NCBI GenBank assembly: GCA_028285205.1
Contig: JANQQA010000141.1
Coordinates: 1-33,276 of the forward strand
Origin: Bythopirellula sp.
GTDB lineage: Bacteria; Planctomycetota; Planctomycetia; Pirellulales; Lacipirellulaceae
DNA length: 33,276 nt
Direction of reading: 5' to 3'
The notes beneath the pieces are model-generated. The model did no database searches. It saw only the letters and a program-made list of their open reading frames with translations, and was not told the DNA's origin. Each line of letters begins with the position of its first letter. Position 1 is the first letter of the stretch. The translations under genes and the position numbers were made by a program. Positions 4,918 to 32,580 of this stretch are shown here, piece by piece.

Positions 4918-4926
4918 CCAGTAGGG

Positions 4927-4932
4927 TCTCCT
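4927..4932 (-). promoter_or_regulatory. Shine-Dalgarno AGGAGA that fixes the kinase start
   Basis: On the minus strand AGGAGA sits about 9 nt upstream of ATG 4917. It decides for that start over the in-frame upstream start at 5010, whose extra 31 residues look non-native (Arg/Pro/Cys-rich). Confidence 0.6.
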
Positions 4933-5087
4933 GATCGCAAGAACACTGCAGAACGCTGGGCATGGCGCACGTGCGGCAGAACGGCCGAAGCGTTCCCCTA
5001 TTCTAGTCACTTGGCCCTCGAATGGGCAGTGGCAGAGCGAGATTCCTTCGCGTTAGACCGTGATTGCAGGGGTCGGAACGCTATCGA

Positions 5088-6422: not shown

Positions 6423-6802
6423 ATGCCACACTCGTATGGAGCCGCGTCGGCTCGTGAGAATTTCGCCAAGCTACCCCTCCGCAGAATACGAACTAGCTCG
6501 ACACGAGCGACTCGGGGCAACGCAAATGCAATAGCGAAACTTATACGGAAAACCGTCGTAAATCAATAGAAACGAAGCCGCGTCGGAACCCCGTGGCTCG
6601 TTGAAAACCTCCATCCACGATTGGTCGTTTTGCCGTAGGGAGCCGTTAGATCACTCGCATGGCAGCTGATGTTGTCACTTGCCGCAGAAGCCGCGTACAA
6701 TCACGGTTTCGATCGCCCCAGCTCGGTCCGCTAGCAAGTACCGATCGTCTACCCCTGGATGGCACTCGCCCAGCATTCGAACCTGCACCGTTGAGCAACT
6801 GA
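6423..6802. other. 380-bp divergent intergenic region of the sugar gene pair
   Basis: No gene-like reading frame is seen. It holds the plus-strand promoter candidate at 6672-6701 and a weaker minus-strand -10-like TATAAG (6540-6545). The latter has TTGATT at only 15 bp spacing, which is suboptimal, about 115 nt before the dehydrogenase start. An AT-rich stretch around 6520-6575 is the likeliest control zone. Confidence 0.4.
6672..6701 (+). promoter_or_regulatory. Sigma70-like promoter of the 4-epimerase gene
   Basis: TTGTCA (6672-6677, 5/6 to TTGACA) and TACAAT (6696-6701, 5/6 to TATAAT) are 18 bp apart. Transcription would start near 6708, giving a leader of roughly 95 nt before ATG 6803. 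This is the best promoter match I found in the window. It is a pattern match only. Confidence 0.5.
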
Positions 6803-7744
6803 ATGACACGAAAGTTCTTAGTCACCGGAGGCGCCGGATTCATCGGCTCACACATTGCCACCGCGCTGGTCGAGCGCGGCGACGATGTCGTCGTGCTGGA
6901 TAACTTGAGTACCGGCCGTAAGGAGAACCTTGAGCACCTCGGCGACCGGGTCACCCTCATTGAAGGTTCGCTGTTGGATCGTGCCGCCGTGGAGCAGGCG
7001 GTCGAAGGTGCTGATGTCGTGTACCATCAGGCAGCGCTGGCATCGGTGCCACGAAGTGTGAAGAAGCCGCTCGACACCAACGCGGCTTGCGTAACGGGGA
7101 CACTCCATATCCTCGATGCTGCGCGGGTGGCTGGCGTGAAGCGGGTGGTCTATGCGGGGTCAAGTAGTGCGTACGGCGATCAGCCGAACATGTCGAAGCG
7201 CGAGTCAGATCTTCCTAGTCCCCTTTCGCCCTACGCGGCGGCGAAACTCGCGGGGGAACTCTACTGCAAAGCGTTTACCGCGACCTACGGGCTAGAGACC
7301 GTCGTGATCCGGTACTTCAATGTCTTTGGACCTCGGCAAGATCCCAACAGCGAGTACTCGGCAGTCATTCCCATTTTCGTCACGAAGATGGTACGCGGCG
7401 AGCGCCCCACGATTTACGGCGATGGCAATCAGTCACGCGATTTCACGTATATCGACAACGTCGTGCGTGGAAACCTGGCGGCAGCGGACGCGGCCGAGGC
7501 GGTCGGCCATTCGATCAACGTCGCGTGCGGCACACAATTCACCTTGCTGCATCTGGTTGAGGCGATCAACAGGGTGCTCGGCACCGATATCGAACCCATC
7601 TTCGACGCGGCGCGGGCGGGTGACGTTCGCGAGAGCCTGGCCGATATTACCAGCGCCAGAGCGCTGCTCGATTACGAGCCTCAGGTCACCTTCGACGAAG
7701 GCCTACAACGCTCGATCGACTATTATCGCTCGCTTATTGGGTGA
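6803..7744 (+). CDS. NAD-dependent UDP-HexNAc(A) 4-epimerase (WbpP/TviC-type SDR)
   Basis: Extended short-chain dehydrogenase/reductase of 313 aa. The NAD-binding motif is TGGAGFIGS (8-16). The catalytic set is Ser121/Ser122 with Tyr144-x3-Lys148 (SPYAAAKLAGE), and RYFNVFGPRQDP is the substrate-loop signature of UDP-sugar 4-epimerases. HQAALASVPRSVKKP resembles the WbpP/TviC branch that handles N-acetylated sugars. In the cytoplasm it would interconvert gluco- and galacto-epimers of UDP-GlcNAc or its uronic acid. ATG 6803 follows directly on the Rossmann strand; no clear Shine-Dalgarno precedes it. Divergence from the dehydrogenase suggests they serve one pathway. GalE or a dTDP-glucose-dehydratase-like role is less likely because the TGxxGxxG/YxxxK surroundings fit WbpP better. 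Confidence 0.82.
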   Translation: MTRKFLVTGGAGFIGSHIATALVERGDDVVVLDNLSTGRKENLEHLGDRVTLIEGSLLDRAAVEQAVEGADVVYHQAALASVPRSVKKPLDTNAACVTGTLHILDAARVAGVKRVVYAGSSSAYGDQPNMSKRESDLPSPLSPYAAAKLAGELYCKAFTATYGLETVVIRYFNVFGPRQDPNSEYSAVIPIFVTKMVRGERPTIYGDGNQSRDFTYIDNVVRGNLAAADAAEAVGHSINVACGTQFTLLHLVEAINRVLGTDIEPIFDAARAGDVRESLADITSARALLDYEPQVTFDEGLQRSIDYYRSLIG

Positions 7745-16209: not shown

Positions 16210-19200
16210 ATGCGTAAGGAAGCTCATCAAAAGTTCGACTGGTCCGGAAGAGTTGAACAGCTAGAAGAGAAGATCGTGATGTCGGCTGATCCACTGGGCG
16301 GATTGCTCGGTGGGCAGATTCACCACCATGCGATCGTCGACGAGATGCCTCCGCTCGCGCATCATGATGCGGATGATGGTCTGCCGCCCATTGAGCATCA
16401 TCTGGCAGAGGACTTGCCTCCGATTAATCACCACCAGGAGAGGGAGGCTGACTTTTGGATTGATTACGAAAACCTGCGTACGATTGAAGAAGAAATCGGG
16501 CGCATTGAGCAGACACTGGCGAACGCCCACGATCAGTCGGGAATGGCCGATGTCACCAACGACTACGGCTTTGACGGCACGGGGCAAACTGTCGCCGTTA
16601 TCGACAGCGGCATTGCTTACGATCACATTGGGTTAGGTGGTGGCTTTGGTTCCAATTACCGCGTCGTCGGTGGCTGGGATTTTACTGAGGGCGACGCCGA
16701 TCCCTACGATGATGGCGCCGCGGGTTCGCACGGCACCCATGTCGCGGGTATTGTCGGCGGAAGCCACGGACAGCATCAGGGGGTCGCTCCCGGGGTAGAT
16801 CTAGTCGGGCTGCGTGTGTTTAACGATGCGGGTGACGGGTACTTCTCCTGGGTAGAAGACGCCCTGCAGTGGGTTCACAACAACAAGGACAGCTTTGAAA
16901 ATCCGATCACCGCGGTGAATCTGTCACTCGGTGTGGCCTCGTACAACTCCGACGCGATTCCAAGTTGGGCAAATCTGGAAAATGAGTTCAACCTGCTGAG
17001 GCAGGCAGGCATATTCATCTCGGTGTCCGCGGGCAACAGTTTCACGAACTTCGAAACAGCCGGGCTAAGTTACCCGGCAGCCAGCCCTCACGTCGTGCCG
17101 GTCGCCTCGGTCGACGACAGCGGCTTGATGAGCTATTTCAGCCAGCGCAATTCGCGGGTGATCGCGGCCCCGGGTCGCGGCATCTTCAGCACGGTGCCCG
17201 ACTATCGAGGCGACAACAACGGCATCACCGACGACTATCGAAGTTTCTCGGGGACGAGTATGGCTGCCCCGTACGTGGCGGGAGCGAGCGTGATCATCCG
17301 TGAGGCGATGGAGTTTGTCGGTTACACGAATATCACTCAGGAAACGATTTACAACCACATGGTTTCGACGGCTGACTCGTTCTACGATTCAGCAACCGAC
17401 GCGTACTACAATCGACTGAATATGGACACGGCGATTGATGCCCTGATGCCAACGGACGACTTCGGGTCGACGCTGGGTTCGGCATTTGACGTGGGAAGTC
17501 TTGGCAATGATCAGTCGATGAGTGGCGTGATCAGCACGCTGGACGACGTGGACTACTTCAAGTTCACCGCGTCTGCTACGGGATCCGTCTCATTCACCGT
17601 GTCGAACCTGACGCACAACCTAACCGCCGATTGGACGTCGGACACCATTGGCGTATGGAGCGGCGCAAACAACGAGACGTTCACGATCGACGTGGTTGCC
17701 GGGCAAGAGTACACCGTCGGATTTTCGTCGGATGACGGACTGGGCTACTACGATCTTGATATCACCTCTGAGGCCTCGGATACGTTCACCTTTAGCGACT
17801 GGGGAGCGCACAGTTTTTCGGCAATCAATGACGTTAGCAATACGGGCGAGAGCTGGTATCGCGTGGTTGCCAATAACACGGCCTACTTCACGGCACAGGC
17901 ATTCTTTGATGCAGGCGGCGGGCAAGTAAGCTTGGAAATCCGCAACGCCAACCTAGAACTAATCGCCACGGGCAACCCGTCCGGTGGTGCTGCTCGTGTG
18001 GACGCGTTTGCCACTGCCGGGTCAGAGTTGTTCCTCAAGGTGACTGGCAACAACAGTGACATCGATTTCCGCTTAACAAACCTGGTGTCCGTCAGTGACA
18101 CCACCGTCAACGTAACGGGTACCTCGGGCAACGACACGTTCACGTTCAACGCGGGCAGCTCGCATTATCTCACCGTCAATGACACGAACTATGTGTTCCA
18201 CTCTGCCTCGGTATCGAACTTCGTCTTCGATGGCGGTGCGGGTCACGACTCTATGACGATAACCGGCACTACGGCCGCTGAAACGGCGACTTTGCGCGTC
18301 AACGAGGCTAGGCTGGTAGGTGCAGGCCTGACCGTCGAATCGTTCGGCACCGAGACCAACACCATTCACAGTGGCGGCGGCCTGGATACCGCCACCTTCC
18401 ACGATTCGGCAGGAGACGACACGTACATTGGTTGGTCCGATCGCGTTTCGCTCACTGGCACCGGATATGCAAACACAGCACAGGGCTTTGTCGAAACGCA
18501 CACGTACGCGACGACTGGCCAAGACCGAGCCACGTTCTATGACTCGGCAGGCAACGACGTATACGTCGGTCGTGCGACTCGTGCCGAGCTTCGCGGCACA
18601 GGTTTCGACAATAGCGTCTACGGATTCGACAACACTCGCGCCTACTCGAGCACCGGACACGACCACGCCGTGTTCTACGACTCCGCAGGCGACGACGTGT
18701 ATGTTGCCTGGGCTGATCGAGCACTCATCACCGGGACAAACTACTACAACGACGCGTACGGCTTCGAACGGACCCTGGCATATTCGTCGACCGGCAATGA
18801 CAAAGCCGTCTTTCACGATTCGGCGGGCGATGACATTTACGTCGCGCGTTCGGACCGGACGTCACTTTCCGGTGCGGGTTTCTACAACACGGTTTACAAT
18901 TTCTCGACTACCGAGACATATGGCACAACGGGCAATGACCGCGCGATCTTCTACGACACCGCTGGAAACGACGTACTGGTCGCTCGGGTGCAGCAGAGTT
19001 CATTACGCGGCACCGGCTACTTCAACCGTGTCTGGAACTTCGGCACGGTGGATGCCTATGCTTCGGGTGGATACGACATCGGCATCCTCTACGACTCAGA
19101 CGGCGATGATGTCTACGTCGGCCGTTCCACCAGCGCATATCTACGCGGCGAGGGATTCAAGAACACGGCTTACGCGTTCGAACGGACGATTACCTACGCC

Positions 19201-19695
19201 AGCGGGGGCCATGACATCGCCGTGCTGTACGACTCTGCCGGCGACGACGTGTACGTGGCGAGGGCTGAACGCACCCACTTAGTGGGCGAAGGATTCTACA
19301 ACGACGTCCGCAACTTCAATCACACGCTGGCCTACTCGTCGACGGGCAACGATCGCGTGGTGTTCCACGACACGTCTGGCAACGATACGTACGTTGCATG
19401 GTCTAATCGCGCTTTGATGACAGGTGACAATTACTACAATGACACGCGTGGATTCAATCGAACGGAGGCCTATGCGACCACCGGCAATGACCGCGCGGTC
19501 TTGCACGACTCGACAAACGATGACGCAGTTCACGCCGTTGCATGGGGGGCCTACATGAGTGACGGCCAGTACCGCAATGAGGCACACGACTTCACCACCG
19601 TCGGCGCCTATTCGACGCACGGGGGCAACGACGTGGTCGCGGAACAAGTCGACGCGCTCGACTACGCGTTCTCCACAGTCGGAGACTGGAGTTGA
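16210..19695 (+). CDS. Giant subtilase (S8) with His-rich N-region and ten 46-aa surface repeats
   Basis: 1161 aa from ATG 16210, with a GGGGGAGA purine run about 5 nt before. It opens with QLEEKIVMSADPL (17-29), like the LEPR-type N-termini of planctomycete surface proteins, in place of a classical signal peptide. A His/Asp/Pro-rich stretch (38-75) and a short helical segment (80-108) may form the propeptide. The peptidase S8 domain spans about 115-410 with Asp132 (VIDSG), His174 (HGTHVAG), oxyanion Asn276 (SAGN) and Ser350 (GTSMAAP), so it should be active. A PPC-type beta domain follows (about 418-515, DDVDYFKF), then a second beta domain (about 515-600) and a GNDTFTF/GGAGHD section. Ten tandem repeats run from residue 680 to 1140. 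It is expected on or outside the cell surface. Its TGA directly abuts the stop of the convergent E1 beta gene. Confidence 0.88.
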   Translation: MRKEAHQKFDWSGRVEQLEEKIVMSADPLGGLLGGQIHHHAIVDEMPPLAHHDADDGLPPIEHHLAEDLPPINHHQEREADFWIDYENLRTIEEEIGRIEQTLANAHDQSGMADVTNDYGFDGTGQTVAVIDSGIAYDHIGLGGGFGSNYRVVGGWDFTEGDADPYDDGAAGSHGTHVAGIVGGSHGQHQGVAPGVDLVGLRVFNDAGDGYFSWVEDALQWVHNNKDSFENPITAVNLSLGVASYNSDAIPSWANLENEFNLLRQAGIFISVSAGNSFTNFETAGLSYPAASPHVVPVASVDDSGLMSYFSQRNSRVIAAPGRGIFSTVPDYRGDNNGITDDYRSFSGTSMAAPYVAGASVIIREAMEFVGYTNITQETIYNHMVSTADSFYDSATDAYYNRLNMDTAIDALMPTDDFGSTLGSAFDVGSLGNDQSMSGVISTLDDVDYFKFTASATGSVSFTVSNLTHNLTADWTSDTIGVWSGANNETFTIDVVAGQEYTVGFSSDDGLGYYDLDITSEASDTFTFSDWGAHSFSAINDVSNTGESWYRVVANNTAYFTAQAFFDAGGGQVSLEIRNANLELIATGNPSGGAARVDAFATAGSELFLKVTGNNSDIDFRLTNLVSVSDTTVNVTGTSGNDTFTFNAGSSHYLTVNDTNYVFHSASVSNFVFDGGAGHDSMTITGTTAAETATLRVNEARLVGAGLTVESFGTETNTIHSGGGLDTATFHDSAGDDTYIGWSDRVSLTGTGYANTAQGFVETHTYATTGQDRATFYDSAGNDVYVGRATRAELRGTGFDNSVYGFDNTRAYSSTGHDHAVFYDSAGDDVYVAWADRALITGTNYYNDAYGFERTLAYSSTGNDKAVFHDSAGDDIYVARSDRTSLSGAGFYNTVYNFSTTETYGTTGNDRAIFYDTAGNDVLVARVQQSSLRGTGYFNRVWNFGTVDAYASGGYDIGILYDSDGDDVYVGRSTSAYLRGEGFKNTAYAFERTITYASGGHDIAVLYDSAGDDVYVARAERTHLVGEGFYNDVRNFNHTLAYSSTGNDRVVFHDTSGNDTYVAWSNRALMTGDNYYNDTRGFNRTEAYATTGNDRAVLHDSTNDDAVHAVAWGAYMSDGQYRNEAHDFTTVGAYSTHGGNDVVAEQVDALDYAFSTVGDWS
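18247..19629 (+). repeat. Ten tandem 138-bp (46-codon) repeats in the protease C-terminus
   Basis: Units start at 18247, 18385, 18523, 18661, 18799, 18937, 19075, 19213, 19351 and 19489. Nine are exactly 46 codons and the last is 47. The consensus is roughly D-x-A-x-F-[HY]-D-[ST]-A-G-[ND]-D, then x-Y-V-[AG]-R, then L-x-G-x-G-[FY]-x-N, then F-x-x-T-x-A-Y-[SA]-[ST]-T-G-[NH]. The first unit is diverged and the last decays. Units 3 and 8 of the conserved set resemble each other most (AW-x-x-RAL and NYYND). The GNDxxxFxDSAGDD segments recall calcium-binding beta-roll (RTX-like) repeats, but the period is longer than the RTX nonapeptide. Confidence 0.9.
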
Positions 19696-20709
19696 TCAGC
19701 TAGCGATACTCAAGGCGGGCCGTGTCGTTTGTCCTGCTTTCAAGAGTTGCGCGGCTTCCGCCGTAATCTGCTCAGCAGTCACGTAATACGCCTGCTCCAA
19801 CACATGACTGGACGGCGCGGGAACATCAGGCAATCCGAGGCGTCGAACGCCGGCGCGAAGTGACTCGAACCCGCGATCAGCGACGGTCGCCGCGATTTCT
19901 GCTCCAACACCGTAGGTCTTCCAAGCTTCGTCGACAACGAGTAGCCGCCCAGTCTTGCGTACCGATTCGAGTACGCACGCTTCGTCCCACGGCTTGATCG
20001 AACGCAAGTCTATGACCTCGGCGAAAATCCCTTGGTCGGCAAGCGATCCGGCCGCTTGCAACGCGAGAGGCACCATGGTCGAAGTCGCAACGACTGTGAC
20101 GTCCGTGCCGGTGCGACAGACATGTGCTTTACCGATTTCTACCTCGTACATTTCCTCAGGCACCTCACACTCTTGCTCGTAGAGTGCCCGGTCATCGATG
20201 TACATCACCGGATTCTCGTCGCGGTGTGCCGCAATTAGTAGCCCCTTCGCATCGTGGGCAGTACTTGGCATCACCACCTTCAACCCTGGAATGTGGGCGA
20301 ACATCGCTTGCAGCGCTTGTGAGTGTTGCGCACCTTGTTCGCCCCGCCGATTGATGACGGCTCGGATCACCAGCGGTACGCCCATCTGGCCACCGAACAC
20401 GTACGACCAGTTAGCCGCTTGGTTCACAATCGCGTCAACGGCCAATAACATGAAATCCATCCGCGGGTGAAATACGATCGGTCGCATTCCCGCCAACGCC
20501 GCGCCCACGGCAGCGCCTGTCGTCGCGTTTTCGCTCACGGGCGAATCGATGACGCGCTCGCGACCGAATTGCTTGTCGAGGTCTTTCATGCTGCTGCCCG
20601 CGTACCAGGGACTCCATAGCCCTTGGCCGATGATGAACGCACGCGAGTCGGTTTCTAGAAGTTGGCCGTGAGCTTCGCGAATTGCTCCAGCATAGTTTAG
20701 GAGGCGCAT
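19696..20709 (-). CDS. 2-oxoacid dehydrogenase E1 component, beta subunit (transketolase-like)
   Basis: 337 aa. It has the E1 beta layout: pyrimidine-binding domain with VIDSPVSENATTGAAVGAAL, catalytic Glu60 contacting the thiamine diphosphate aminopyrimidine, then DAIVNQAANW (92-101), RRGEQGAQHSQALQAMFAHI (121-140, His129) and GLKVVMPSTAHDAKGLL. The C-terminal transketolase domain contains DVTVVATSTMV and AEVIDLRSIKPWD. With the alpha subunit it forms an alpha2beta2 thiamine-diphosphate enzyme that decarboxylates a 2-oxo acid. Its ATG at 20709 lies inside the end of the alpha gene (13-bp overlap), so the two are translationally coupled. No E2 or E3 gene is in the window. Sequence alone does not tell whether pyruvate, a branched-chain oxoacid or something else is the substrate. 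The gene is tail-to-tail with the protease gene, with no base between stops. Confidence 0.87.
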   Translation of the reverse strand: MRLLNYAGAIREAHGQLLETDSRAFIIGQGLWSPWYAGSSMKDLDKQFGRERVIDSPVSENATTGAAVGAALAGMRPIVFHPRMDFMLLAVDAIVNQAANWSYVFGGQMGVPLVIRAVINRRGEQGAQHSQALQAMFAHIPGLKVVMPSTAHDAKGLLIAAHRDENPVMYIDDRALYEQECEVPEEMYEVEIGKAHVCRTGTDVTVVATSTMVPLALQAAGSLADQGIFAEVIDLRSIKPWDEACVLESVRKTGRLLVVDEAWKTYGVGAEIAATVADRGFESLRAGVRRLGLPDVPAPSSHVLEQAYYVTAEQITAEAAQLLKAGQTTRPALSIAS

Positions 20710-21701
20710 TGGGTGACTCCCTGCGGTTGATAGAAAACGTGGTCTAGCACTTCGCTCGCTTCGGGTCGCGGCGATTGTCGGGCATAGAGTTCCGCGCCAC
20801 GCACCTCGTCATCAACGAGGTGCCGAAGCTCGTCAAGTGTCGCTTCCGCGACACCGAGTTCAAGAAGCTGTCGTCTGGTTGCGGCGATGGGGTCTTTCTG
20901 CACCCACTCTTGCAGTTCGTCCTTCCGTTTTACACCGACGTCATAATCCCAAGCGGGACCCACATGTCCTCGCCAGCGAAACGTCCGATACTCGATCAAC
21001 GTCGGACCGCCACCGCTGCGGGCTCGAGCGACAGCCTCTAGCGCGGCCTGATACACCGCCTCTACGTCGTTGCCGTCGACGCTCATGCTGGCGATCCCGT
21101 GGGCGTCACCTGATTGGGGGATATTGTCCTTGAGTCGTCGCTCGTCGATACCCATGTGGCTGGAGTACAAGTTGTTTTCGCAAACGAACAGGACGGGCAG
21201 CTGATTGATGCCGGCTAAATTTAGTGACTCGTGAAAGTGCCCTTCTTCCGTCGCGCCATCGCCGAAGAACGCCACCGATACATTGCTCTCACCTCGCAAC
21301 CGATAGGCCATGCCAGCGCCGACGGCAATCGGAATCGTCGCGGCGACAATTGGGACTGTCCCTACAACGCCGACTTCCGGAGCACAGACGTGCATCGAAC
21401 CACCGCGACCGCTCGAGCAGCCCGTGCGACGGCAGAATATTTCCGCCATCAGCGTGCGCATATCACCACCCTTCGCCAGGTAGTGCCCATGCGAGCGATG
21501 GGCGCCGAATATCTGGTCTTCGATCTCAAGAGCGGCGCAAACACCCGTGGGTGGCGCTTCCTGCCCGATGCAGAAGTGACATGCGGTTTTCACGTCCTTC
21601 GATTCGACAAGTTCCGCAACGCGCTCCTCGAAGACACGGATTCGCAACATCATGTGATAGAAATCTACGAGCCTATCTCGCTCAATCGATTGGCCTTTCA
21701 T
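20697..21701 (-). CDS. 2-oxoacid dehydrogenase E1 component, alpha subunit
   Basis: 334 aa from ATG 21701, which has a perfect AAGGAG 8 nt upstream. A GTG one codon earlier is less well placed. The thiamine diphosphate/Mg motif is GDGATEEGHFHESLNLA (147-163) with the terminal Asn-Asn at 176-177 (CENNLYS). The flanking H-RSHGHYLAKGGD and GRGGSMH (99-104) are the cofactor-site loops of pyruvate/acetoin/branched-chain E1 alpha subunits. It pairs with the overlapping beta gene. Placement downstream of the methyltransferase, sugar transferase and aldo/keto reductase suggests it works on a glycan precursor or its acyl substituent, not in central metabolism. That is inference: acetoin or branched-chain dehydrogenase operons would carry an E2, and none is visible here. 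Confidence 0.88.
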   Translation of the reverse strand: MKGQSIERDRLVDFYHMMLRIRVFEERVAELVESKDVKTACHFCIGQEAPPTGVCAALEIEDQIFGAHRSHGHYLAKGGDMRTLMAEIFCRRTGCSSGRGGSMHVCAPEVGVVGTVPIVAATIPIAVGAGMAYRLRGESNVSVAFFGDGATEEGHFHESLNLAGINQLPVLFVCENNLYSSHMGIDERRLKDNIPQSGDAHGIASMSVDGNDVEAVYQAALEAVARARSGGGPTLIEYRTFRWRGHVGPAWDYDVGVKRKDELQEWVQKDPIAATRRQLLELGVAEATLDELRHLVDDEVRGAELYARQSPRPEASEVLDHVFYQPQGVTQCAS

Positions 21702-21709
21702 CACACTCT

Positions 21710-21715
21710 CTCCTT
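21710..21715 (-). promoter_or_regulatory. Strong Shine-Dalgarno AAGGAG before E1 alpha
   Basis: AAGGAG on the minus strand, 8 nt before ATG 21701. It is the best ribosome site in the window and selects ATG over the neighbouring GTG at 21704. Confidence 0.7.
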
Positions 21716-21771
21716 CGTGACGTCGTTACTTTGCGGGGTAGATGATTTCGTCTTTCACCGTTCCAAATGAG

Positions 21772-22722
21772 TTAGGCCACTAACGGCTCCGACAGGGCGT
21801 CAAGATCATCAAGCTCCCGGCAACTCTCGCTATCGAGCAACCAAGAAGCACTGCCCACATTGTCGTCCACTTGACTCGGTCGTTTGGCGCCAAACAACAC
21901 CACATCAATGTTCTGAGAGTCGACCAGCCAGCGAATCGCGACCTGCGCTGGACTGCGCGCCGACTTTGCCGCCACGCTCCGCACAACGTCGACGACCTTT
22001 AGATTGGCTTTGAACTTCGCACCGCTGAAGTTTTCGTAACGATGTCGACGATCGCCCTTCGCGAAGCTCGCGTTGACATCGAATTTGCCTGTCAGTAACC
22101 CCTGAGCGAGTGCTCCCCAAGCCACCAACTTAACGCCGTATTTCCGAGCCACTGGCACGAGCGTTTCGAGCTGTTCCCGATCAACCAGGCTGCACTGGAA
22201 CTGCACAGCAGCGATCTGCGTCACACTGCACGCCTGTTCCAACTGCTCAGCTGAGAAGTTGGAAACACCGATTGACTGAATCTTGCCCGCCTCCTGGCAA
22301 CGCTGCAGCGCGCCGATCACATCCACAATGGGAGTGATATGATCCGGCCAATGGACATAGTACAACGGGATGCTCTCCAAGCGCAACCTGCGCAAACTCG
22401 ACTCAAGTGCCGAACGCAAATAGGGCAGTGAGAGGTCTTTCGTCGTGCTGCCGTCTGCGTCCCAACGGACTCCGAATTTCGTTGCGATCACCGCGTCGTG
22501 CCGCTGCGATCCGAGTGCTTCGCTCAGCAGTCGCTCAGATTGCCCGAGACCGTACACGTCCGCAGTGTCGAAGAACGTCACGCCGTGGTCCCAAGCTCGC
22601 CGTACGGCATCCACGCCCTCCGTCGCTTGAAAGTCCGCACCCCAACCATGCCCGCCTAACGGGCAACCGCCAAATCCCAATCGGGTGACGGACAGCCGTC
22701 GCGAAAGTTGCACACTCTCCAT
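21772..22722 (-). CDS. Aldo/keto reductase
   Basis: 316 aa from ATG 22722, preceded by AAGGAG 6 nt upstream (22729-22734). The catalytic tetrad of the AKR superfamily is complete: Asp52 (FDTADVYG), Tyr57, Lys82 (ATKFG) and His124 (YYVHWPD). The NADPH-binding end has GVSNFSAEQL and the phosphate-loop region LFGAKRPSQVDDN. It is a soluble cytoplasmic TIM-barrel NADPH-dependent oxidoreductase. The start codon overlaps the sugar-transferase stop as TAATG, so the two genes are translationally coupled, and E1 alpha follows after 70 bp. In this setting it may reduce a keto-sugar or the ketone made by the E1 enzyme. General detoxification roles of the family cannot be excluded, and nothing in the sequence names the substrate. 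Confidence 0.87.
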   Translation of the reverse strand: MESVQLSRRLSVTRLGFGGCPLGGHGWGADFQATEGVDAVRRAWDHGVTFFDTADVYGLGQSERLLSEALGSQRHDAVIATKFGVRWDADGSTTKDLSLPYLRSALESSLRRLRLESIPLYYVHWPDHITPIVDVIGALQRCQEAGKIQSIGVSNFSAEQLEQACSVTQIAAVQFQCSLVDREQLETLVPVARKYGVKLVAWGALAQGLLTGKFDVNASFAKGDRRHRYENFSGAKFKANLKVVDVVRSVAAKSARSPAQVAIRWLVDSQNIDVVLFGAKRPSQVDDNVGSASWLLDSESCRELDDLDALSEPLVA

Positions 22723-23351
22723 TAGTGGCTCCTTCGAAGGCTGCGGTGGACCAGCGTGTAACATGTTCTCAAGATTATGGATAAGTCACCGAGGAAAGAT
22801 CGTTGGTTGACGTATTGCAGGCGCAGTGCATTCTTTTGAGGCAAGATCTGCTCTCGAAAAACCTTATCGGGGTCTTCCGATCCAACGTGCGACTGGAGAT
22901 CATGAAACTTAAGGCTGGAGAGATCAGTAATCCCAGGCCGGACGGATAAGATCTGTCGTTCCTCTTCGGTAAACTGACTCGTGTACTCTTCAACCTCAGG
23001 ACGAGGGCCCACAAAGCTCATTTCACCCCGCAAGACGTTCAATAGTTGCGGGAGTTCATCCAACTTGTATTTCCGCAGGAAGTGCCCAATGCGAGTGATC
23101 CGCGCATCGCTGTCGCCCGTGGTCGTGCCGCCTAGCTGCTCGGCTTCTGCAACCATTGAGCGGTACTTGTAGATCTGAAATGGGACACCCCATCTACCGG
23201 ATCGCCGCCCTCGGTAGAGGACGGGACCAGGCGAGCTGAGCTTGACGGCTAGCGCGGTCAGCAACATCACCGGACTGAGCACGACGAGCCCTACAGCCGC
23301 GAGCACAAAGTCGAATGCTCTTTTCGAAATGTCGTAGGCACTATGCCGCAT
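22722..23351 (-). CDS. Initiating sugar-phosphate transferase (bacterial sugar transferase family, short form)
   Basis: 209 aa from ATG 23351; a longer frame to a TTG at 23414 lacks support. One N-terminal hydrophobic segment (14-36) precedes the catalytic domain, with KYRSM (62-66), the LRKYKLDELPQLLNVLRGEMSFVGPRPE run (92-119) and VRPGIT (137-142). These are signatures of the polyprenyl-phosphate phosphoglycosyl transferases (PF02397; WcaJ, WbaP and PglC relatives). It would move a sugar-1-phosphate from UDP-sugar to undecaprenyl phosphate at the cytoplasmic membrane, the first step in building a repeat unit. It is the short, PglC-like form without the extra N-terminal TM bundle of WcaJ/WbaP. 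Its start overlaps the methyltransferase end by 11 bp and its stop overlaps the AKR start, so the three are a tight transcription unit. Confidence 0.9.
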   Translation of the reverse strand: MRHSAYDISKRAFDFVLAAVGLVVLSPVMLLTALAVKLSSPGPVLYRGRRSGRWGVPFQIYKYRSMVAEAEQLGGTTTGDSDARITRIGHFLRKYKLDELPQLLNVLRGEMSFVGPRPEVEEYTSQFTEEERQILSVRPGITDLSSLKFHDLQSHVGSEDPDKVFREQILPQKNALRLQYVNQRSFLGDLSIILRTCYTLVHRSLRRSH

Positions 23352-24267
23352 GTTTTCGATCGCTAGGGGTCGTTTTTGAAGTGCCACCAACCGCCGTCGG
23401 CTTATGCAGTTCAAAGGTAAATTGCCAACCCATGTACGACAGCGGTGGTATCTTCAGTACGACGGCGTCCAGGGCATTGCCGACTGCTAAAGCTGTACCG
23501 AACAAGGGCGTCCGACGCAGCGGTGTTGCCATAATGCTGAACAAGTGCCAGTACTTCACGTTCTTGACCGCGAAGTTACGCTTCGCCAATTTCAGATCTT
23601 TATGCGAGAGAATGTGGTGCTTTTCCCACTCCGTTCGCAGTTCCGGTGTGATCAGACGATACAGTTTCACCACCGGGTTGTAGTCGAGCGCTTCAACCGC
23701 CAGGCAGATCCCGCCGGGCTTTAAGACTCTTGCCATCTCTGGAAAGGCCTGCTTCACATCCAAGTGGTGCAACATGCCCGAGCAGATGATCACATCCACG
23801 CAATCGTCTGGAAGGCGTGTATCTTCACAGTCGCCCTGAATGAATACTGCCGTGGCGTCGACGCCTTCACGGCGCGCGTCCTCGCGTGCGTTCTCCACGG
23901 AGATCTTGCTAACGTCGAGTCCAATTGACAAGGCCGCGCCCATGCGCGCCGCCTCGCGTGTGAGGCTTCCCTGACCACAGGCGTAGTCTAAGACGACTTT
24001 GCCAGGAACGTGCTGCTTGATCCAATCGAGGACATAGCTGGTCGACTTTTCGGTCGTTGAGTAGAAGCGCTTGTTGGCACGTTTCTTCTCCGGCAGATCT
24101 TCCGAGCTTGGGTCATGACCACATCGATCTACCTTGCTGTCATGGAATACCGCTTCTTCTTGCTTGCGTTGCTCAAGCGTATCGACCCAACCGCTGTCGG
24201 CAGCTCGATCGAGCGATGGTAGCAATGCATTCAGTTCGGCCACAGTCATACTATCTGAGCTGGTCAC
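23341..24267 (-). CDS. SAM-dependent methyltransferase (class I)
   Basis: 308 aa from GTG 24267, chosen because GGGAGA (24276-24281 on the minus strand) sits 8 nt upstream. The in-frame ATG at 24249 has no ribosome site. Residues 89-110 carry motif I (KVVLDYACGQGSLTREA), followed by GLDVS (116-120), the GDCEDTRLPDD acidic loop (145-155) and SGMLHHLDV (163-171), as in Methyltransf_11-type enzymes. The C-terminal 100 residues (with LYRLITPELRTEWEKHH) are a family-specific extension that recurs in glycan-locus methyltransferases. It probably O-methylates a sugar of the glycan, or a lipid-linked intermediate, in the cytoplasm. It is the first gene of the minus-strand operon and overlaps the next gene by 11 bp. 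Confidence 0.85.
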   Translation of the reverse strand: MTSSDSMTVAELNALLPSLDRAADSGWVDTLEQRKQEEAVFHDSKVDRCGHDPSSEDLPEKKRANKRFYSTTEKSTSYVLDWIKQHVPGKVVLDYACGQGSLTREAARMGAALSIGLDVSKISVENAREDARREGVDATAVFIQGDCEDTRLPDDCVDVIICSGMLHHLDVKQAFPEMARVLKPGGICLAVEALDYNPVVKLYRLITPELRTEWEKHHILSHKDLKLAKRNFAVKNVKYWHLFSIMATPLRRTPLFGTALAVGNALDAVVLKIPPLSYMGWQFTFELHKPTAVGGTSKTTPSDRKHAA

Positions 24268-24609
24268 TCGACTATTCTCCCATCGAGAGGCGGTGAAATG
24301 CTTAGAATTGCGGGGGATTCATAGTGGCATCGCAAGAGTGCGACGACCTATGAGCGGCGGACTATAGGCCGTGCCGCAGTTGTCATCAACAGCAATCTGT
24401 GACGCGACATAGGCGTTGACACACGTGCGTGAATTCAAGACGATCCGCGTCACAACAGATCCGGCTCCCCGCTAAAATCTGTGCCGAGATCGAAGTGACA
24501 CCGCGATTCCACTTGGGCAAATCGACGTCAGTACGATTACCCTAATCCGGATTCCGTCGTGTGCACGGATGATCTTACGATCTACGATCCAGTATACTCG
24601 AGAAGATCT
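24268..24609. other. 342-bp divergent intergenic region of the glycan locus
   Basis: No gene-like frame. It contains the minus-strand promoter candidate at 24361-24389. On the plus strand there is a perfect TTGACA (24416-24421) with no good -10 at 16-18 bp, and a TATACT (24591-24596 area) too near the WbpB-like start to be useful. Both glycan operons should be controlled from here. Confidence 0.4.
24361..24389 (-). promoter_or_regulatory. Candidate promoter of the minus-strand glycan operon
   Basis: On the minus strand TTGATG (24384-24389) and TATAGT (24361-24366) are separated by 17 bp (4/6 and 5/6 to consensus). Transcription would start near 24355, leaving about 88 nt before GTG 24267. 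Its position fits the whole MT to E1 beta operon. Confidence 0.45.
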
Positions 24610-25596
24610 ATGAATTTTGCTCTGATCGGCGCTGCAGGTTACATCGCACCTCGCCACATGCAAGCGATTCACGACACTGGCAATCAACTGCTCGCAGCCG
24701 TCGACCCGCACGATAATGTGGGGCAACTCGACCGCTACTTCACGCAAGCCAAGTTCTTCACTGAGATTGAACGATTCGATCGATACCTGGAAAAGCTACG
24801 GCGCAACGCAGCGCCGGAGAGCCGTGTCAACTACGTCAGCATCTGCAGCCCAAACTATTTGCACGATGCACATGTGCGGCTCGCGTTGCGAGTCAAGGCA
24901 AATGCCATCTGCGAGAAACCGCTAGTCATTTCGCCCTGGAACCTGGACGCACTTGAGGAACTCGAAGCCGAATCGGGCCAAAGAGTTTACACGGTCTTGC
25001 AACTGCGCAGCCTTCCCACAATCAGAAAGTTGCGCGAGCAGCTACTTCAGTCCGAAGAGCGTGCCAAACCGGAAGTCTCGCTGAACTATATCACGCGCCG
25101 CGGAGCGTGGTACGACGTTTCCTGGAAGGGTGAGCGATCCAAATCGGGTGGCATCGCGATGAACATTGGCATCCACTTTTTCGACCTACTGTTGTGGCTG
25201 TTTGGCGACGTCGAATCAAGCTTCGTCGAGTTACACGAAAAACGAAGAATGGCGGGGAGATTAGAGTTGGAACGCGCAAACGTAAGTTGGTTCCTCTCCG
25301 CCGACGAAACCGACCTGCCGAAACAATGCGTCGAGCAAAACCAATTCGCCTACCGGTCAATGACGCTCAATGGCGAAGAAGTTGAATTCTCGAACGGGTT
25401 CACGGATCTACATACTCGTGTTTACGAAGAGATCCTCGCGGGGTGCGGAACCGGAATCGCTGATGCACGTCCCGCTATCGAGTTGGTTCATCAGATCAGC
25501 CACGCCGAAGTCGCGACGGGGCCCAGCACCATCTCGCTTGAGTCTGCCTTGGCTCGTTCCAATGAACCGCACATACAGCGACGGCGTGTCGCCTAG
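24610..25596 (+). CDS. wbpB: UDP-GlcNAc(A) 3-dehydrogenase (WbpB/WlbA-type Gfo/Idh/MocA oxidoreductase)
   Basis: 328 aa from ATG 24610, which begins the Rossmann strand (MNFALIGAAGYIAPRHMQAI). The frame runs open to 24559 but without Rossmann sequence. The N-terminus is the WbpB/WlbA signature: GAAGYIAPRHM, VDPHDNVG, YVSICSPNYLHDAHVR (75-90), AICEKPL (99-105, the Lys103 of EKP) and WNLDAL. Downstream, GGIAMNIGIHFFDLLLWLFG carries the family His/Asp. The reaction, from the Pseudomonas and Bordetella members, is oxidation of C3 of UDP-GlcNAcA to the 3-keto sugar using NAD, coupled with the next transaminase. Its partners WbpD- and WbpE-like follow in order. It is the first gene of the plus-strand operon; the ribosome site is only a weak GAGAAG. 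Confidence 0.88.
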   Translation: MNFALIGAAGYIAPRHMQAIHDTGNQLLAAVDPHDNVGQLDRYFTQAKFFTEIERFDRYLEKLRRNAAPESRVNYVSICSPNYLHDAHVRLALRVKANAICEKPLVISPWNLDALEELEAESGQRVYTVLQLRSLPTIRKLREQLLQSEERAKPEVSLNYITRRGAWYDVSWKGERSKSGGIAMNIGIHFFDLLLWLFGDVESSFVELHEKRRMAGRLELERANVSWFLSADETDLPKQCVEQNQFAYRSMTLNGEEVEFSNGFTDLHTRVYEEILAGCGTGIADARPAIELVHQISHAEVATGPSTISLESALARSNEPHIQRRRVA

Positions 25597-30188: not shown

Positions 30189-31514
30189 ATGTTTCCTGGC
30201 TTAATTGCAATCTATCTGATTCTGTTTGTGATGTGTGCGGTCGCGTTCTCATCACGCGAAGGCTATTGGTCTCCGGTCACGATTTTCGGCATCACCGCCT
30301 TTTATTACTACCTCGCCTTGCCGCTGGAACTGTATCTGAAAGGCGAGGAAGTCTTTTCGACGTATCCCGCCTTGTTCTTGGTTACTGACGAAACCAGATT
30401 GCGTATTGCGATTGCCGCCGTCCTTTCGTTTCTTGGGTTTATTGCAGGTCACCACCTTTCGGGACTGGGACAAGCGCTTCGTGAGAGTCATCAGCAAGCC
30501 AACGGAAGGATCCCCCGATCGCTGGCCTGGTTTTTCATCGGCTCGGTTGGACTGCTGTTCATGGTCTACGGCACAACGATCTTTGAGCGGCTGTCCTATA
30601 TGGAAGCCGCGGAACGAAAGTCGGGCGACTCTTTCTTCGGGTTCATTACCAAAAACTGCCTAATTCTCATTGGGCTCTTGGCAGCTACGGTGTTGCAGCG
30701 GCGGGACCTCTCTCGGTATTTCGCCCTTCCGCTACTGCTGCCCATAATCTATTGGGGATTCTTCACATCTGACAAGAATCCGTTGCTAATTGCCGCACTC
30801 GCCGTCAGCGTGATTTGGGTCGGCGTAAAAAGTCGGTCCACCAAGTACCTATACTTTTACTGTGGTGCGGCGATCCTGGCGGTGGCCAGCCTCCCACTGT
30901 TTTCCGCTTTGCGGGCGGAGCAAGACGTGCAGATCGGCTCAGCCTTTGAGAACTTCTCCGTTGAACGAACCGACGCCCGCGGACCGCTGATGAGCCTCTC
31001 AGCGACCATGGCGAACGAAGAGCCCACAATTCATGGGATGAGCTACATCCAAGGGCTCGTTTCCTGGGTGCCGCGCTCCATTTGGCCCAACCGGCCCAAG
31101 AATCTCGCGCAAGAATTCGCAGTGGCGAACATCCCCAACTGGAACGAAGGCATGGGGCTCGGCTATTCGTTGCTTGCCGAAGGCTATGTCAATTTCGGCT
31201 TTACCGGAGTCTTTCTTCACTACCTCGTGTTGTCGCTTATGATGGGGTGGATCATGCGCGCCACCTACGCCCTGTGCAAAAGCTCGGGCGACACGGCCTA
31301 CTGGCGCGCACTGGTGGTGATCGTCTACTTCCAGCTGTTGGTACTGATGCATCGCGGTCCCGTGTCGCAAGTGGTTCAGATTGGTATTCACGAATTCGTC
31401 GTGCCTGTTTTTCTGTTTTGGATTCTCGATCGCAGGACCAAGCATGCGAATCGCGGGCTCCGATCACGGCCCAACCTGCCGCTTACGTCGCGTCGGGCTA
31501 TCGCGGCGACCTGA
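30189..31514 (+). CDS. O-antigen/exopolysaccharide polymerase (Wzy-like)
   Basis: 441 aa from ATG 30189, 13 bp after the flippase stop. About ten or eleven predicted TM segments (for example 5-22, 28-47, 71-88, 110-128, 151-166) surround a large periplasmic loop. The loop contains YIQGLVSWVPRSIWPNRPKN, a pattern like the W-x-PR-x-x-WP-x-KP stretch of Wzy proteins, and NWNEGMGLGYSLLAEGYVNFG, typical of oligosaccharide repeat unit polymerases. Sequence conservation in Wzy is always low, so this call leans on topology and position. It would join lipid-linked repeat units in the periplasm. The last 30 residues (after WILDRRTKH) are basic and may be cytoplasmic. Confidence 0.78.
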   Translation: MFPGLIAIYLILFVMCAVAFSSREGYWSPVTIFGITAFYYYLALPLELYLKGEEVFSTYPALFLVTDETRLRIAIAAVLSFLGFIAGHHLSGLGQALRESHQQANGRIPRSLAWFFIGSVGLLFMVYGTTIFERLSYMEAAERKSGDSFFGFITKNCLILIGLLAATVLQRRDLSRYFALPLLLPIIYWGFFTSDKNPLLIAALAVSVIWVGVKSRSTKYLYFYCGAAILAVASLPLFSALRAEQDVQIGSAFENFSVERTDARGPLMSLSATMANEEPTIHGMSYIQGLVSWVPRSIWPNRPKNLAQEFAVANIPNWNEGMGLGYSLLAEGYVNFGFTGVFLHYLVLSLMMGWIMRATYALCKSSGDTAYWRALVVIVYFQLLVLMHRGPVSQVVQIGIHEFVVPVFLFWILDRRTKHANRGLRSRPNLPLTSRRAIAAT

Positions 31515-31569
31515 GTTAGCGGCACCAGTGGATGTACGAAGCAACCTTGCGGCAGATTGGAGTAACGTC

Positions 31570-32580
31570 TTGCGAGTCTTATGGGTTCACAATTTTTCGC
31601 CTGACACGGTCGCTTCCGGGGTGTTCATGCATGTTCTCGCCGAGAAGATGCGCGATCTGAGCGTCGAAATTCAGCTCCACTACACCGGCTGCCTGAAGAG
31701 CATTCGTGGCTACCGTGCTGTCGCCAAACAGATACGCGAGATTTCTGCACGGTATGATCTTGTGCACTCTCAATTCGGATCCGCCTGCGGCTACCTGGCA
31801 GCGCATGCGCAGGGACCGAAGATCTTGACCCTCCGGGGCACTGACTTGCTTGGTAGCGATACTGGCGGCTTCCGCAACCGATTGCATGGGCGGCTGGTGC
31901 GCTGGATGACCGGGAGCTCGATCCCTTCTTACGATCGTGTACTCGTTGCCTCGCAACGGATGCGTGCAGAACTCATGCAACATCACAAGCGAGAAGCGGG
32001 AATTGAAATATTGCCCAGCGGCATCGACTTGAAAAAGTTCCAGCCGCTCAGCCGCCAGCAAGCGCGGGAGCGGCTCGGCTGCGGAGACGACCAACGACCT
32101 TGGATGCTTTTTTCGTCTGTGACGAAGAACAACCACGTCAAACGTCCGCAGCTGGCACTGGAAGTCCTTGCTCAAGCGCAGCGCGAGATGCCGGAACTGG
32201 TCATGCAAACACTCACCGGTAAGCCCCACGCGGAAGTGCCACTGTGGATGAACGCGTCGAATGCCGTCTTGCTGACTTCGACGCGTGAGGGATGGCCGAA
32301 CATCGTCAAGGAAGCGCTAGCATGCAATACACCGTTTGTGAGTACGGATGTCAGTGATCTCGCCAGCATCGCTAGCATCGAGCCGAGTTGCCATGTGTCT
32401 TGCGACGATCCGAAAAATCTCGCGAGATTTCTGGTGCAAACCATCAATTCTCCGCGACCTGAGACCCTCTCCAAACACGTCCAAGAGATGGAACTGGAAC
32501 ACACGGGCCAAAAGCTACGCACAATCTACCGTTCCGTTCTGGAACCCAATGCAGTGCTAGCTGTCGATGCGGCAGCATAG
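31570..32580 (+). CDS. Glycosyltransferase family 4 (second)
   Basis: 336 aa from TTG 31570. GGAG (31559-31562) is 7 nt upstream, and the protein starts directly with the Rossmann strand LRVLWVHNFSPDTVASGVFM. A GTG at 31528 and longer frames to 31381 overlap the wzy tail and lack an RBS. The C-terminal GT-B domain has ILPSGIDLKKFQP (147-159), SSVTKNNHVKRPQLAL and STREGWPNIVKEALACNTPFVSTDV. The GT4 EX7E pair is Glu240 and Glu248. It probably adds a sugar to the glycan repeat on the cytoplasmic face; donor and linkage cannot be told. It is the last gene of the plus-strand run before a 259-bp gap. Confidence 0.85.
   Translation: MRVLWVHNFSPDTVASGVFMHVLAEKMRDLSVEIQLHYTGCLKSIRGYRAVAKQIREISARYDLVHSQFGSACGYLAAHAQGPKILTLRGTDLLGSDTGGFRNRLHGRLVRWMTGSSIPSYDRVLVASQRMRAELMQHHKREAGIEILPSGIDLKKFQPLSRQQARERLGCGDDQRPWMLFSSVTKNNHVKRPQLALEVLAQAQREMPELVMQTLTGKPHAEVPLWMNASNAVLLTSTREGWPNIVKEALACNTPFVSTDVSDLASIASIEPSCHVSCDDPKNLARFLVQTINSPRPETLSKHVQEMELEHTGQKLRTIYRSVLEPNAVLAVDAAA

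What the first reader, a model, noticed from the sequence alone, without database searches (positions are those of the whole stretch)
19696..24267. An orphan E1 alpha/beta pair embedded in a glycan operon with AKR, methyltransferase and initiating transferase
The minus-strand run is MT, sugar transferase, AKR, E1 alpha, E1 beta. The MT, sugar transferase and AKR genes overlap one another (11-bp overlap, TAATG) and the two E1 genes overlap by 13 bp, while the AKR-E1 alpha gap is 70 bp with a strong AAGGAG. There is no E2 lipoyl transferase or E3 nearby. So the thiamine diphosphate enzyme may not make acyl-CoA for central metabolism. It may instead make an activated acyl or acetoin-like unit, or a branched sugar, that the AKR reduces and the MT methylates before transfer to the glycan. 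This is the most system-like novelty here.
Basis: partly seen in the sequence, partly recalled or inferred. Interest (0 to 1): 0.7.

Follow-up and report, generated by a model that had tools for sequence, protein, structure and literature searches.

The report
Sugar-branching enzyme pair in glycan operon
A pair of genes resembling the first part of pyruvate dehydrogenase sits in a bacterial surface-polysaccharide operon, where it most likely grafts a two-carbon branch onto a sugar; the chemistry is known from antibiotics, but here it recurs in surface-glycan gene clusters of many kinds of bacteria.

Summary
The E1 pair is an orphan: the genome's only E1_dh hit, while its only E2 goes with an AceE. 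The E1 beta belongs to a family seen here in 82 loci under 19 phylum labels, none with an E2/E3/lipoyl gene detected nearby. ThDP catalytic residues are kept; at the E2-docking position 72 of 81 have Lys/Arg, none Asp/Glu. Neighbours recur: PGT (58 of 82), a PglF/CapD-type 4,6-dehydratase (42), and an AKR (11) or a DegT aminotransferase (61), rarely both (2). This mirrors antibiotic branched-sugar pathways (alphaKADH2: AviB1/B2, Pau11/12, KbDH), where an E1-like pair adds acetyl from pyruvate to a ketosugar and the branch ketone is reduced (Pau7, an AKR) or transaminated (kibdelomycin). Best reading: E1 pair plus AKR make a hydroxyethyl-branched sugar for a surface polysaccharide. A 2025 review places alphaKADH2 mainly in antibiotics and LPS branching with YerE, so the glycan setting is a new variant of a known kind. 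No activity or product is shown; acceptor, timing and the MT's role are unknown.

The parts
19696..20709 (-). E1 beta subunit (Transket_pyr + Transketolase_C), 337 aa
   Evidence: Pfam 100.3 and 139.4 bits; beta-E60 and beta-H129 in 82 of 82 family rows
20697..21701 (-). E1 alpha subunit (E1_dh), 334 aa, start ATG 21701 (GTG ORF start 21704)
   Evidence: Pfam E1_dh 212.4 bits; only E1_dh match in the genome
21772..22764 (-). Aldo-keto reductase; likely true start ATG at 22723
   Evidence: Pfam Aldo_ket_red 239 bits; TAATG junction; tetrad D/Y/K/H (recalled motif) present
22722..23414 (-). Initiating sugar transferase (Bac_transf, small PglC-like form); likely true start ATG at 23351
   Evidence: Pfam PF02397 195.9 bits; overlap
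23341..24267 (-). SAM-dependent methyltransferase, target unknown
   Evidence: Pfam Methyltransf_11 83.7 bits; homologue in the same place in G091
24559..25596 (+). Gfo/Idh/MocA oxidoreductase, first gene of the divergent glycan operon
   Evidence: Pfam GFO_IDH_MocA 59.3 bits
25606..26253 (+). Hexapeptide acyltransferase
   Evidence: Pfam Hexapep 65.6 bits
26123..27514 (+). DegT/DnrJ/EryC1 aminotransferase (with its oxidoreductase and acyltransferase neighbours WbpB/D/E-like, by recall)
   Evidence: Pfam PF01041 416.1 bits
27444..28778 (+). Glycosyltransferase family 4-like; homologues lie just before the MT in G091 and several relatives
   Evidence: Pfam Glyco_trans_1_4 56.3 bits
28742..30175 (+). 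Possible flippase (weak evidence)
   Evidence: no Pfam match; TIGR02900 at 21.7 bits, below its cut-off
30189..31514 (+). Wzy-type polymerase
   Evidence: Pfam O-ag_pol_Wzy 53.3 bits; TIGR04370 44.6 bits, cut-off 40
31381..32580 (+). Glycosyltransferase family 4-like
   Evidence: Pfam Glyco_transf_4 47.9 bits

Best explanation
The E1 alpha/beta pair is a stand-alone ThDP carboligase of the alphaKADH2 sugar-branching kind. It decarboxylates a 2-oxoacid (most likely pyruvate) and adds the C2 unit to the ring ketone of a ketosugar, giving a tertiary alcohol with an acetyl branch. The AKR then reduces the branch ketone to a hydroxyethyl group; in most related loci a DegT aminotransferase stands in its place and would give an aminoethyl branch. 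The sugar goes into a Wzy-type surface polysaccharide, perhaps as its first residue through the neighbouring initiating transferase. Shown here: orphan status, intact ThDP catalytic residues, loss of the E2-docking acidic residue, conserved gene set, AKR/DegT alternation. Inferred: donor, acceptor, position of the branch, order of steps, roles of PGT and MT.
For: Only E1_dh in the genome; only E2 goes with AceE. No E2/E3/lipoyl match in 82 of 82 family loci (3.3-33 kb, median 14 kb) against 12 of 21 control loci. Catalytic beta-E60 and beta-H129 in 82 of 82. E2-docking position (human E1 beta D289, role recalled): K/R in 72 of 81, D/E in 0; controls with an E2 have D/E in 18 of 19 readable rows (8 of 9, 10 of 10). 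Family is one clade (99*) inside a 100* clade with seven other E2-less E1s of sugar clusters. AKR 11, DegT 61, both 2, neither 12 of 82; AKR directly before E1 alpha in 11 of 11. PglF/CapD-type dehydratase, a maker of 4-ketosugars, within 5 kb in 42 of 82, among them 6 of 11 AKR loci (five checked by Pfam); this genome has such genes elsewhere. Precedent: Pau11/Pau12 + AKR Pau7, and KbDH with a transaminated branch.
Against: No activity or product known. No 4-ketosugar maker lies beside the operon in this window. The E1-adjacent DegT is closest to QdtB, DesV and WbpE among named solved structures, which by recall aminate ring ketones, not branches. AKR here is nearest IolS and GSP69, while Pau7 is AKR5. 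The AKR/DegT alternation is not significant in the independent-pairs test (6 pairs, median p 0.25; 0.125 with all 72 rows), and 2 loci have both, 12 neither. PGT, DegT and dehydratase genes are common in glycan clusters; no background rate was measured. Lys/Arg at the docking site also occurs in E2-less E1s outside glycan clusters (L161, L163). Sequences of AviB, Pau and KbDH were not available for a tree.
Confidence: 0.6

Rival explanations
1. Chain extension rather than branching: the pair works like a split transketolase or DXS, adding a C2 unit to an aldehyde to make a longer ketose or 1-deoxyketose, whose ketone AKR reduces or DegT aminates before activation and transfer.
For: Same cofactor chemistry. 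In the sister clade, E1 pairs lie with kinase, isomerase and nucleotidyltransferase genes such as build activated heptoses (L139 PfkB and SIS; L140 kinase, nucleotidyltransferase, epimerases; L212 by eye).
Against: No such sugar-activation family recurs near the 82 family loci (none of the families found in more than 8 loci, as far as I identified them). Transketolase profile match is weak (22.3 bits against 212.4 for E1_dh).
Confidence: 0.15
2. The AKR acts on another ketone (for example on a sugar ring) and is only a neighbour; the E1 pair does branching or something else on its own.
For: Wide AKR family; nearest solved relatives are IolS and GSP69. The window's own DegT, Gfo/Idh and acyltransferase genes form a separate pathway.
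Against: AKR lies directly before E1 alpha in 11 of 11 AKR loci, 17-99 bp away, in lineages that are scattered over the tree (8 changes, at least 5 forced), and rarely with DegT.
Confidence: 0.1
3. Ordinary E1 of a 2-oxoacid dehydrogenase complex that works in trans with an E2 encoded elsewhere.
For: Nearest solved relatives are pyruvate dehydrogenase E1 subunits; catalytic residues intact.
Against: Single E2 with its own AceE; docking residue reversed; below the NCBIfam equivalog cut-offs (299.3 against 393.85 for alpha); no E2 in 82 of 82 loci.
Confidence: 0.05
4. A free small molecule (acetoin, acyloin or aldehyde) is made and reduced, unrelated to the glycan apart from genome position.
For: Acetoin-linked E1s are relatives in the same superfamily (review).
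Against: Recurrent PGT, 4,6-dehydratase and aminotransferase neighbours on the same strand in many phyla.
Confidence: 0.05

Closest known systems
Paulomycin Pau11/Pau12 + Pau7 (PMC4425429, PMC4753412; passages seen)
   Same: E1 alpha/beta homologues without E2, proposed to add a C2 unit from pyruvate to a sugar, followed by an AKR that reduces the branch ketone (Pau7 shown in vivo and in vitro)
   Different: Antibiotic cluster in Streptomyces; AKR of family AKR5; genes not in one E1-AKR cassette; no initiating transferase
alphaKADH2 branching enzymes: AviB1/B2, EvdU5/EvdS3, KbDH alpha/beta (PMC12247030, section 2.2 read; PMC10338323, passages)
   Same: Two-subunit E1-like carboligases for C2 branches on ketosugars; branch reduced or transaminated
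   Different: Review places them mainly in antimicrobial natural products (about 120 clusters); here in surface-glycan operons of many phyla
YerE (yersiniose A, O-antigen of Yersinia pseudotuberculosis)
   Same: ThDP-dependent C2 branching of an NDP-4-ketosugar for a surface polysaccharide
   Different: A member of the decarboxylase superfamily in the review, not an E1 alpha/beta pair
PglF-PglE-PglC type initiation of glycans (recalled)
   Same: 4,6-dehydratase, DegT aminotransferase and small initiating transferase recur around the family
   Different: An E1-like pair is added, and in 11 of 82 loci an AKR stands beside it

Membership tests
E1 of a 2-oxoacid dehydrogenase complex (PDH/BCKDH type) | E1_dh and transketolase-like subunits with ThDP motif and catalytic Glu/His | tested here: met
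E1 of a 2-oxoacid dehydrogenase complex (PDH/BCKDH type) | Cognate E2/E3 in the operon or an E2 elsewhere that lacks an E1 | tested here: not met
   no E2/E3 nearby; the only E2 goes with AceE
E1 of a 2-oxoacid dehydrogenase complex (PDH/BCKDH type) | Acidic residue at the E2-docking site of E1 beta (recalled role) | tested here: not met
   Arg285 in the window; K/R in 72 of 81, D/E in 0 of the family
E1 of a 2-oxoacid dehydrogenase complex (PDH/BCKDH type) | Score above NCBIfam cut-offs for PDH E1 | tested here: not met
   alpha 299.3 against 393.85; beta 308.6 against 321
alphaKADH2 sugar-branching carboligases | Separate E1 alpha and beta homologues without E2, in a sugar gene cluster | tested here: met
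alphaKADH2 sugar-branching carboligases | Source of a ring-ketone sugar in the organism | tested here: met
   Gmd-like gene on C35 and PglF/CapD-like gene on C17, not beside this operon
alphaKADH2 sugar-branching carboligases | Groups in a tree with AviB, Pau and KbDH sequences | not testable with these tools
   sequences not held; papers 34 and 85 not held
alphaKADH2 sugar-branching carboligases | Carboligation of pyruvate with a ketone | not testable with these tools
   needs an assay
AKR with an octose-ketoreductase role (Pau7-like) | AKR fold family and catalytic tetrad | tested here: met
   Pfam 239 bits; Y, K, H in 11 of 11 and D in 10 of 11 cassette AKRs (L068 has E; fragment L072_0 left out)
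AKR with an octose-ketoreductase role (Pau7-like) | Membership of AKR5 (Pau7 is AKR5I) | not tested
   Pau7 sequence not held; nearest solved chains are IolS and GSP69
YerE-like branching enzymes | Decarboxylase-superfamily ThDP enzyme | tested here: not met
   Pfam finds E1_dh and transketolase-type domains only
Split transketolase | Transketolase_N as best match of the first subunit | tested here: not met
   22.3 bits against 212.4 for E1_dh

The most novel reading that the evidence does not exclude
A widespread surface-glycan cassette, found in bacteria of many phyla and in some archaeal bins, in which an E1-type carboligase C-branches the very sugar that the neighbouring transferase loads first onto the lipid carrier, with an interchangeable finishing module (AKR for an alcohol, DegT for an amine). 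C-branched octose-like sugars would then be a common motif of environmental cell surfaces rather than a rarity of a few O-antigens and antibiotics, and the antibiotic alphaKADH2 enzymes could be offshoots of it.
Probability: 0.3. Interest if true: 0.75.

Novelty: new variant of a known kind. Interest (0 to 1): 0.55.

Why it matters
Genes like these score as pyruvate or acetoin dehydrogenase subunits and are easily counted as central metabolism. If they are sugar-branching carboligases, the 242 stretches found in one scan (a lower bound, since exact patterns were needed) point to C-branched surface sugars in many lineages, give a gene signature by which to find them, and offer enzymes that make tertiary alcohols. 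The natural swaps of AKR for DegT give a ready test of whether the E1 product is a ketone.

Tried and rejected
Rejected: an E1 acting in trans with the genome's E2 (AceE serves it; docking residue reversed); split transketolase by profile; YerE family; viral carriage (viral-contig scan: 23 pattern matches, none confirmed).

An error of mine, mended: cluster F0, labelled GTi, merges initiating transferases with PglF/CapD dehydratases and epimerases. The '71 of 82' is therefore not used; one search separates them (PGT within 2.6 kb on the same strand 58 of 82, or 39 of 51 with at least 2.6 kb on both sides; dehydratase within 5 kb 42 of 82, or 23 of 37 with at least 5 kb on both sides; 31 of the 42 align over 474 aa or more, the shorter ones may be pieces or other SDRs). 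F8 counts differ between (19 loci; 39) and are not used. ORF-based AKR/DegT counts (11 AKR, 56 DegT, 2 both, 17 neither) missed genes hidden by antisense ORFs; one search replaces them.

Led nowhere: paper searches for E1 pairs with DegT or in polysaccharide clusters gave nothing relevant; one search gave no paper with Asp289, so that residue's role is recalled. Krug et al. 2024 and the AviB paper are not held. No structure was predicted.

Rows dropped: tree has 107 rows (82 family, 25 others); left out were L016, L042, L052 (fragments), L011, L012, L017 (duplicates of L040, L041, L043) and the rows L015-L035 other than L018, L022, L024, L027 (mostly fused E1s). Searches used 72 of 82 rows (10 lack an E1 alpha of over 250 aa). 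Control rows (46) include the three duplicates and L016 = L042.
Full report
What is there. On the minus strand, 24267 to 19696, lie a methyltransferase (MT), a small initiating sugar transferase (PGT), an aldo-keto reductase (AKR), E1 alpha and E1 beta. A divergent plus-strand set holds a Gfo/Idh/MocA oxidoreductase, a hexapeptide acyltransferase, a DegT aminotransferase, two glycosyltransferases and a Wzy-type polymerase; a flippase is only weakly indicated. The setting is a Wzy-type polysaccharide.

The pair is an orphan. The genome has one E1_dh match, this one, and one E2 match. Its Transket_pyr matches are three: transketolase, DXS and this E1 beta (names by my reading of the sequences). 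An AceE of 901 aa on contig C254 is followed by the lipoyl start of an E2, and the E2 catalytic part lies at the edge of contig C82. That the two pieces are one aceF is inferred; aceE lies directly before aceF in 3 of 4 relatives with the orphan pair (AceE 82% identical in G091), not in the 14 kb fetched from the fourth, G122, which also has a second, fused E1. Each of these four genomes has one E2 match. The genome is not complete, so a missing second E2 is possible.

The family. Of 296 genomes of the order, 82 have an E1 alpha match at E <= 1e-40; five are at 52% identity or more (this genome, G091, G189, G084, G122), the others listed at 47% or less. G091 has the same five genes in the same order. 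A scan of genome contigs with the E1 beta alignment gave 242 stretches that encode relatives, of which the best 80 were kept. The patterns HPRMDFM and GQGLWSPW were used, so conservation of those columns is partly by selection. With the window and G091 this makes 82 loci, three of them the contigs of G189, G084 and G122 again, under 19 phylum labels in the tree (three archaeal). Nearly all are metagenome bins, so single placements may be wrong.

What the enzyme has kept and lost. beta-E60 and beta-H129 are in 82 of 82; alpha-H71 and alpha-H246 in 72 of 72, and the GDG...NN motif in 71 of 72 with one D-to-E change. In Geobacillus E1, E59-beta triggers cofactor activation and H128-beta serves pyruvate addition and acyl transfer (PMC2663715, passages). 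At the position of human E1 beta D289 (docking role recalled; position counted on the alignment) the family has K/R in 72 of 81 and D/E in none. Controls whose loci hold an E2 have D/E in 18 of 19 readable rows: 8 of 9 (L044 has L, L052 is a gap) and 10 of 10. Two controls with only a free lipoyl protein have R and K (L137, L138). But K/R is not special to glycan loci: E2-less E1s elsewhere have it too (L161, L163; also L190, L205, L206, L209, of unknown setting). beta-120, near the catalytic His, is Asn in 82 of 82 against Gly in 43 of 44 filled control rows. On the E1 beta tree the family is one clade (99*), inside a 100* clade with seven E1s that also lack E2 and lie in sugar clusters (L040, L041, L045, L046, L049, L139, L140). 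That tree is a quick one with 35 of 104 branches under 80 support.

The neighbourhood. No E2, E3 or lipoyl gene was detected in any of the 82 loci (3.3 to 33 kb, median 14 kb), against 12 of 21 control loci. By tblastn on the same strand, an AKR lies within 1.5 kb in 11 of 82 and a DegT aminotransferase within 2.6 kb in 61; 2 have both, 12 neither (Fisher p 4e-5). With at least 2.6 kb on both sides: 6 AKR only, 38 DegT only, 2 both, 5 neither of 51, p 6e-4. Loci are related, so these p values are too small. On the trees the two labels need 8 changes, at least 5 forced by supported branches, about as scattered as shuffled labels (mean 8.6). The independent-pairs test points the same way but is not significant (6 pairs, on average 3.5 opposite, 0.1 same, 2.4 no difference; median p 0.25; 0.125 with all 72 rows). 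The window's own DegT gene, 4.6 kb away on the other strand, was not counted. A PGT lies within 2.6 kb in 58 of 82 and directly before the AKR in 10 of 11 AKR loci; a PglF/CapD-type dehydratase lies within 5 kb in 42 of 82, and in 6 of 11 AKR loci (Pfam check of five examples, L099's on the other strand). Such genes are common in glycan clusters and I have no background rate. In this genome a PglF/CapD-like gene lies on C17 and a Gmd-like one on C35.

Precedent. In paulomycin, the E1-like Pau11/Pau12 are proposed to add a C2 unit from pyruvate, and Pau7, an AKR, was shown to reduce the acetyl branch to hydroxyethyl (PMC4425429 and PMC4753412, passages; also PMC4802897, passages). For everninomicin, UDP-4-keto-xylose is the hypothesized acceptor of EvdU5/EvdS3 (PMC10338323, passages). 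A 2025 review (PMC12247030; section 2.2 read whole, other passages) calls the class alphaKADH2, reports in vitro carboligation by KbDH, and says that the branch ketone is reduced in some products and transaminated in kibdelomycin. PMC10055692 (listing only) speaks of an alpha-aminoalkyl linkage in its amycolose. The review gives YerE-like enzymes to cell structures such as LPS and alphaKADH2 mainly to antimicrobial products. The AKR/DegT alternation is what two of those fates would look like in gene content.

Limits of the reading. The named solved structures nearest to the E1-adjacent DegT (example L106) are QdtB, DesV and WbpE (names DesV and all reactions recalled), ring aminotransferases, which speaks for a ring ketone in DegT loci. 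The nearest solved AKRs are IolS and GSP69; four other AKRs in this genome are 30-35% identical. In the sister clade E1 pairs lie with sugar-activation genes, so chain extension remains a rival. Timing of branching (before or after transfer) and the MT's target are open.

Verdict. Most likely an alphaKADH2-type sugar-branching carboligase with its ketoreductase, working in surface-polysaccharide synthesis (confidence 0.6). The mechanism class is known; the glycan-operon setting, the breadth and the swapped finishing enzyme are the new part. In searches I saw no paper that describes E1-type branching enzymes in surface-glycan operons; most subscription journals, and the 2024 in-silico survey that the review cites, are not held.

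Noticed in passing
window 16210-19695 (+); L036:5000-8371 (+): A large subtilase gene (Peptidase_S8) ends right beside E1 beta in convergent orientation, and a homologue (53% over 1098 aa) lies in the same place in G091; its link to the glycan is unknown.
   Followed up: partly
L139, L140, L212: A sister clade of E2-less E1 pairs lies with DegT, epimerase and sugar-activation genes (PfkB/SIS, kinase, nucleotidyltransferase), as if building an activated higher sugar.
   Followed up: partly
L161:7989-10035 (Streptomyces griseofuscus plasmid pSGRIFU1): An E2-less E1 pair with the same H-x-R and Gln/Lys signatures lies in a cluster with condensation-domain, acyl carrier and P450 genes, perhaps a carboligase of a non-sugar natural product.
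   Followed up: no
L056 (G000:C254), between aceE (ends 2760) and the E2 lipoyl start: A short ORF that looks like a DUF559-type endonuclease (name recalled) lies between aceE and aceF.
   Followed up: no
L114:11235-13679: One 814-aa protein fuses an initiating sugar transferase to a PglF/CapD-type dehydratase, right after an E1-DegT set.
   Followed up: no
L137:8003-8242 and L138:7940-8188: Plasmid E1 pairs followed by a stand-alone lipoyl-type protein and no E2 core; both have Arg or Lys at the E2-docking position.
   Followed up: no
window 3229-5010 (-): A 593-aa protein with a Ser/Thr protein kinase domain near a nucleotide-sugar dehydrogenase (5088-6431) and an epimerase (6803-7744).
   Followed up: no
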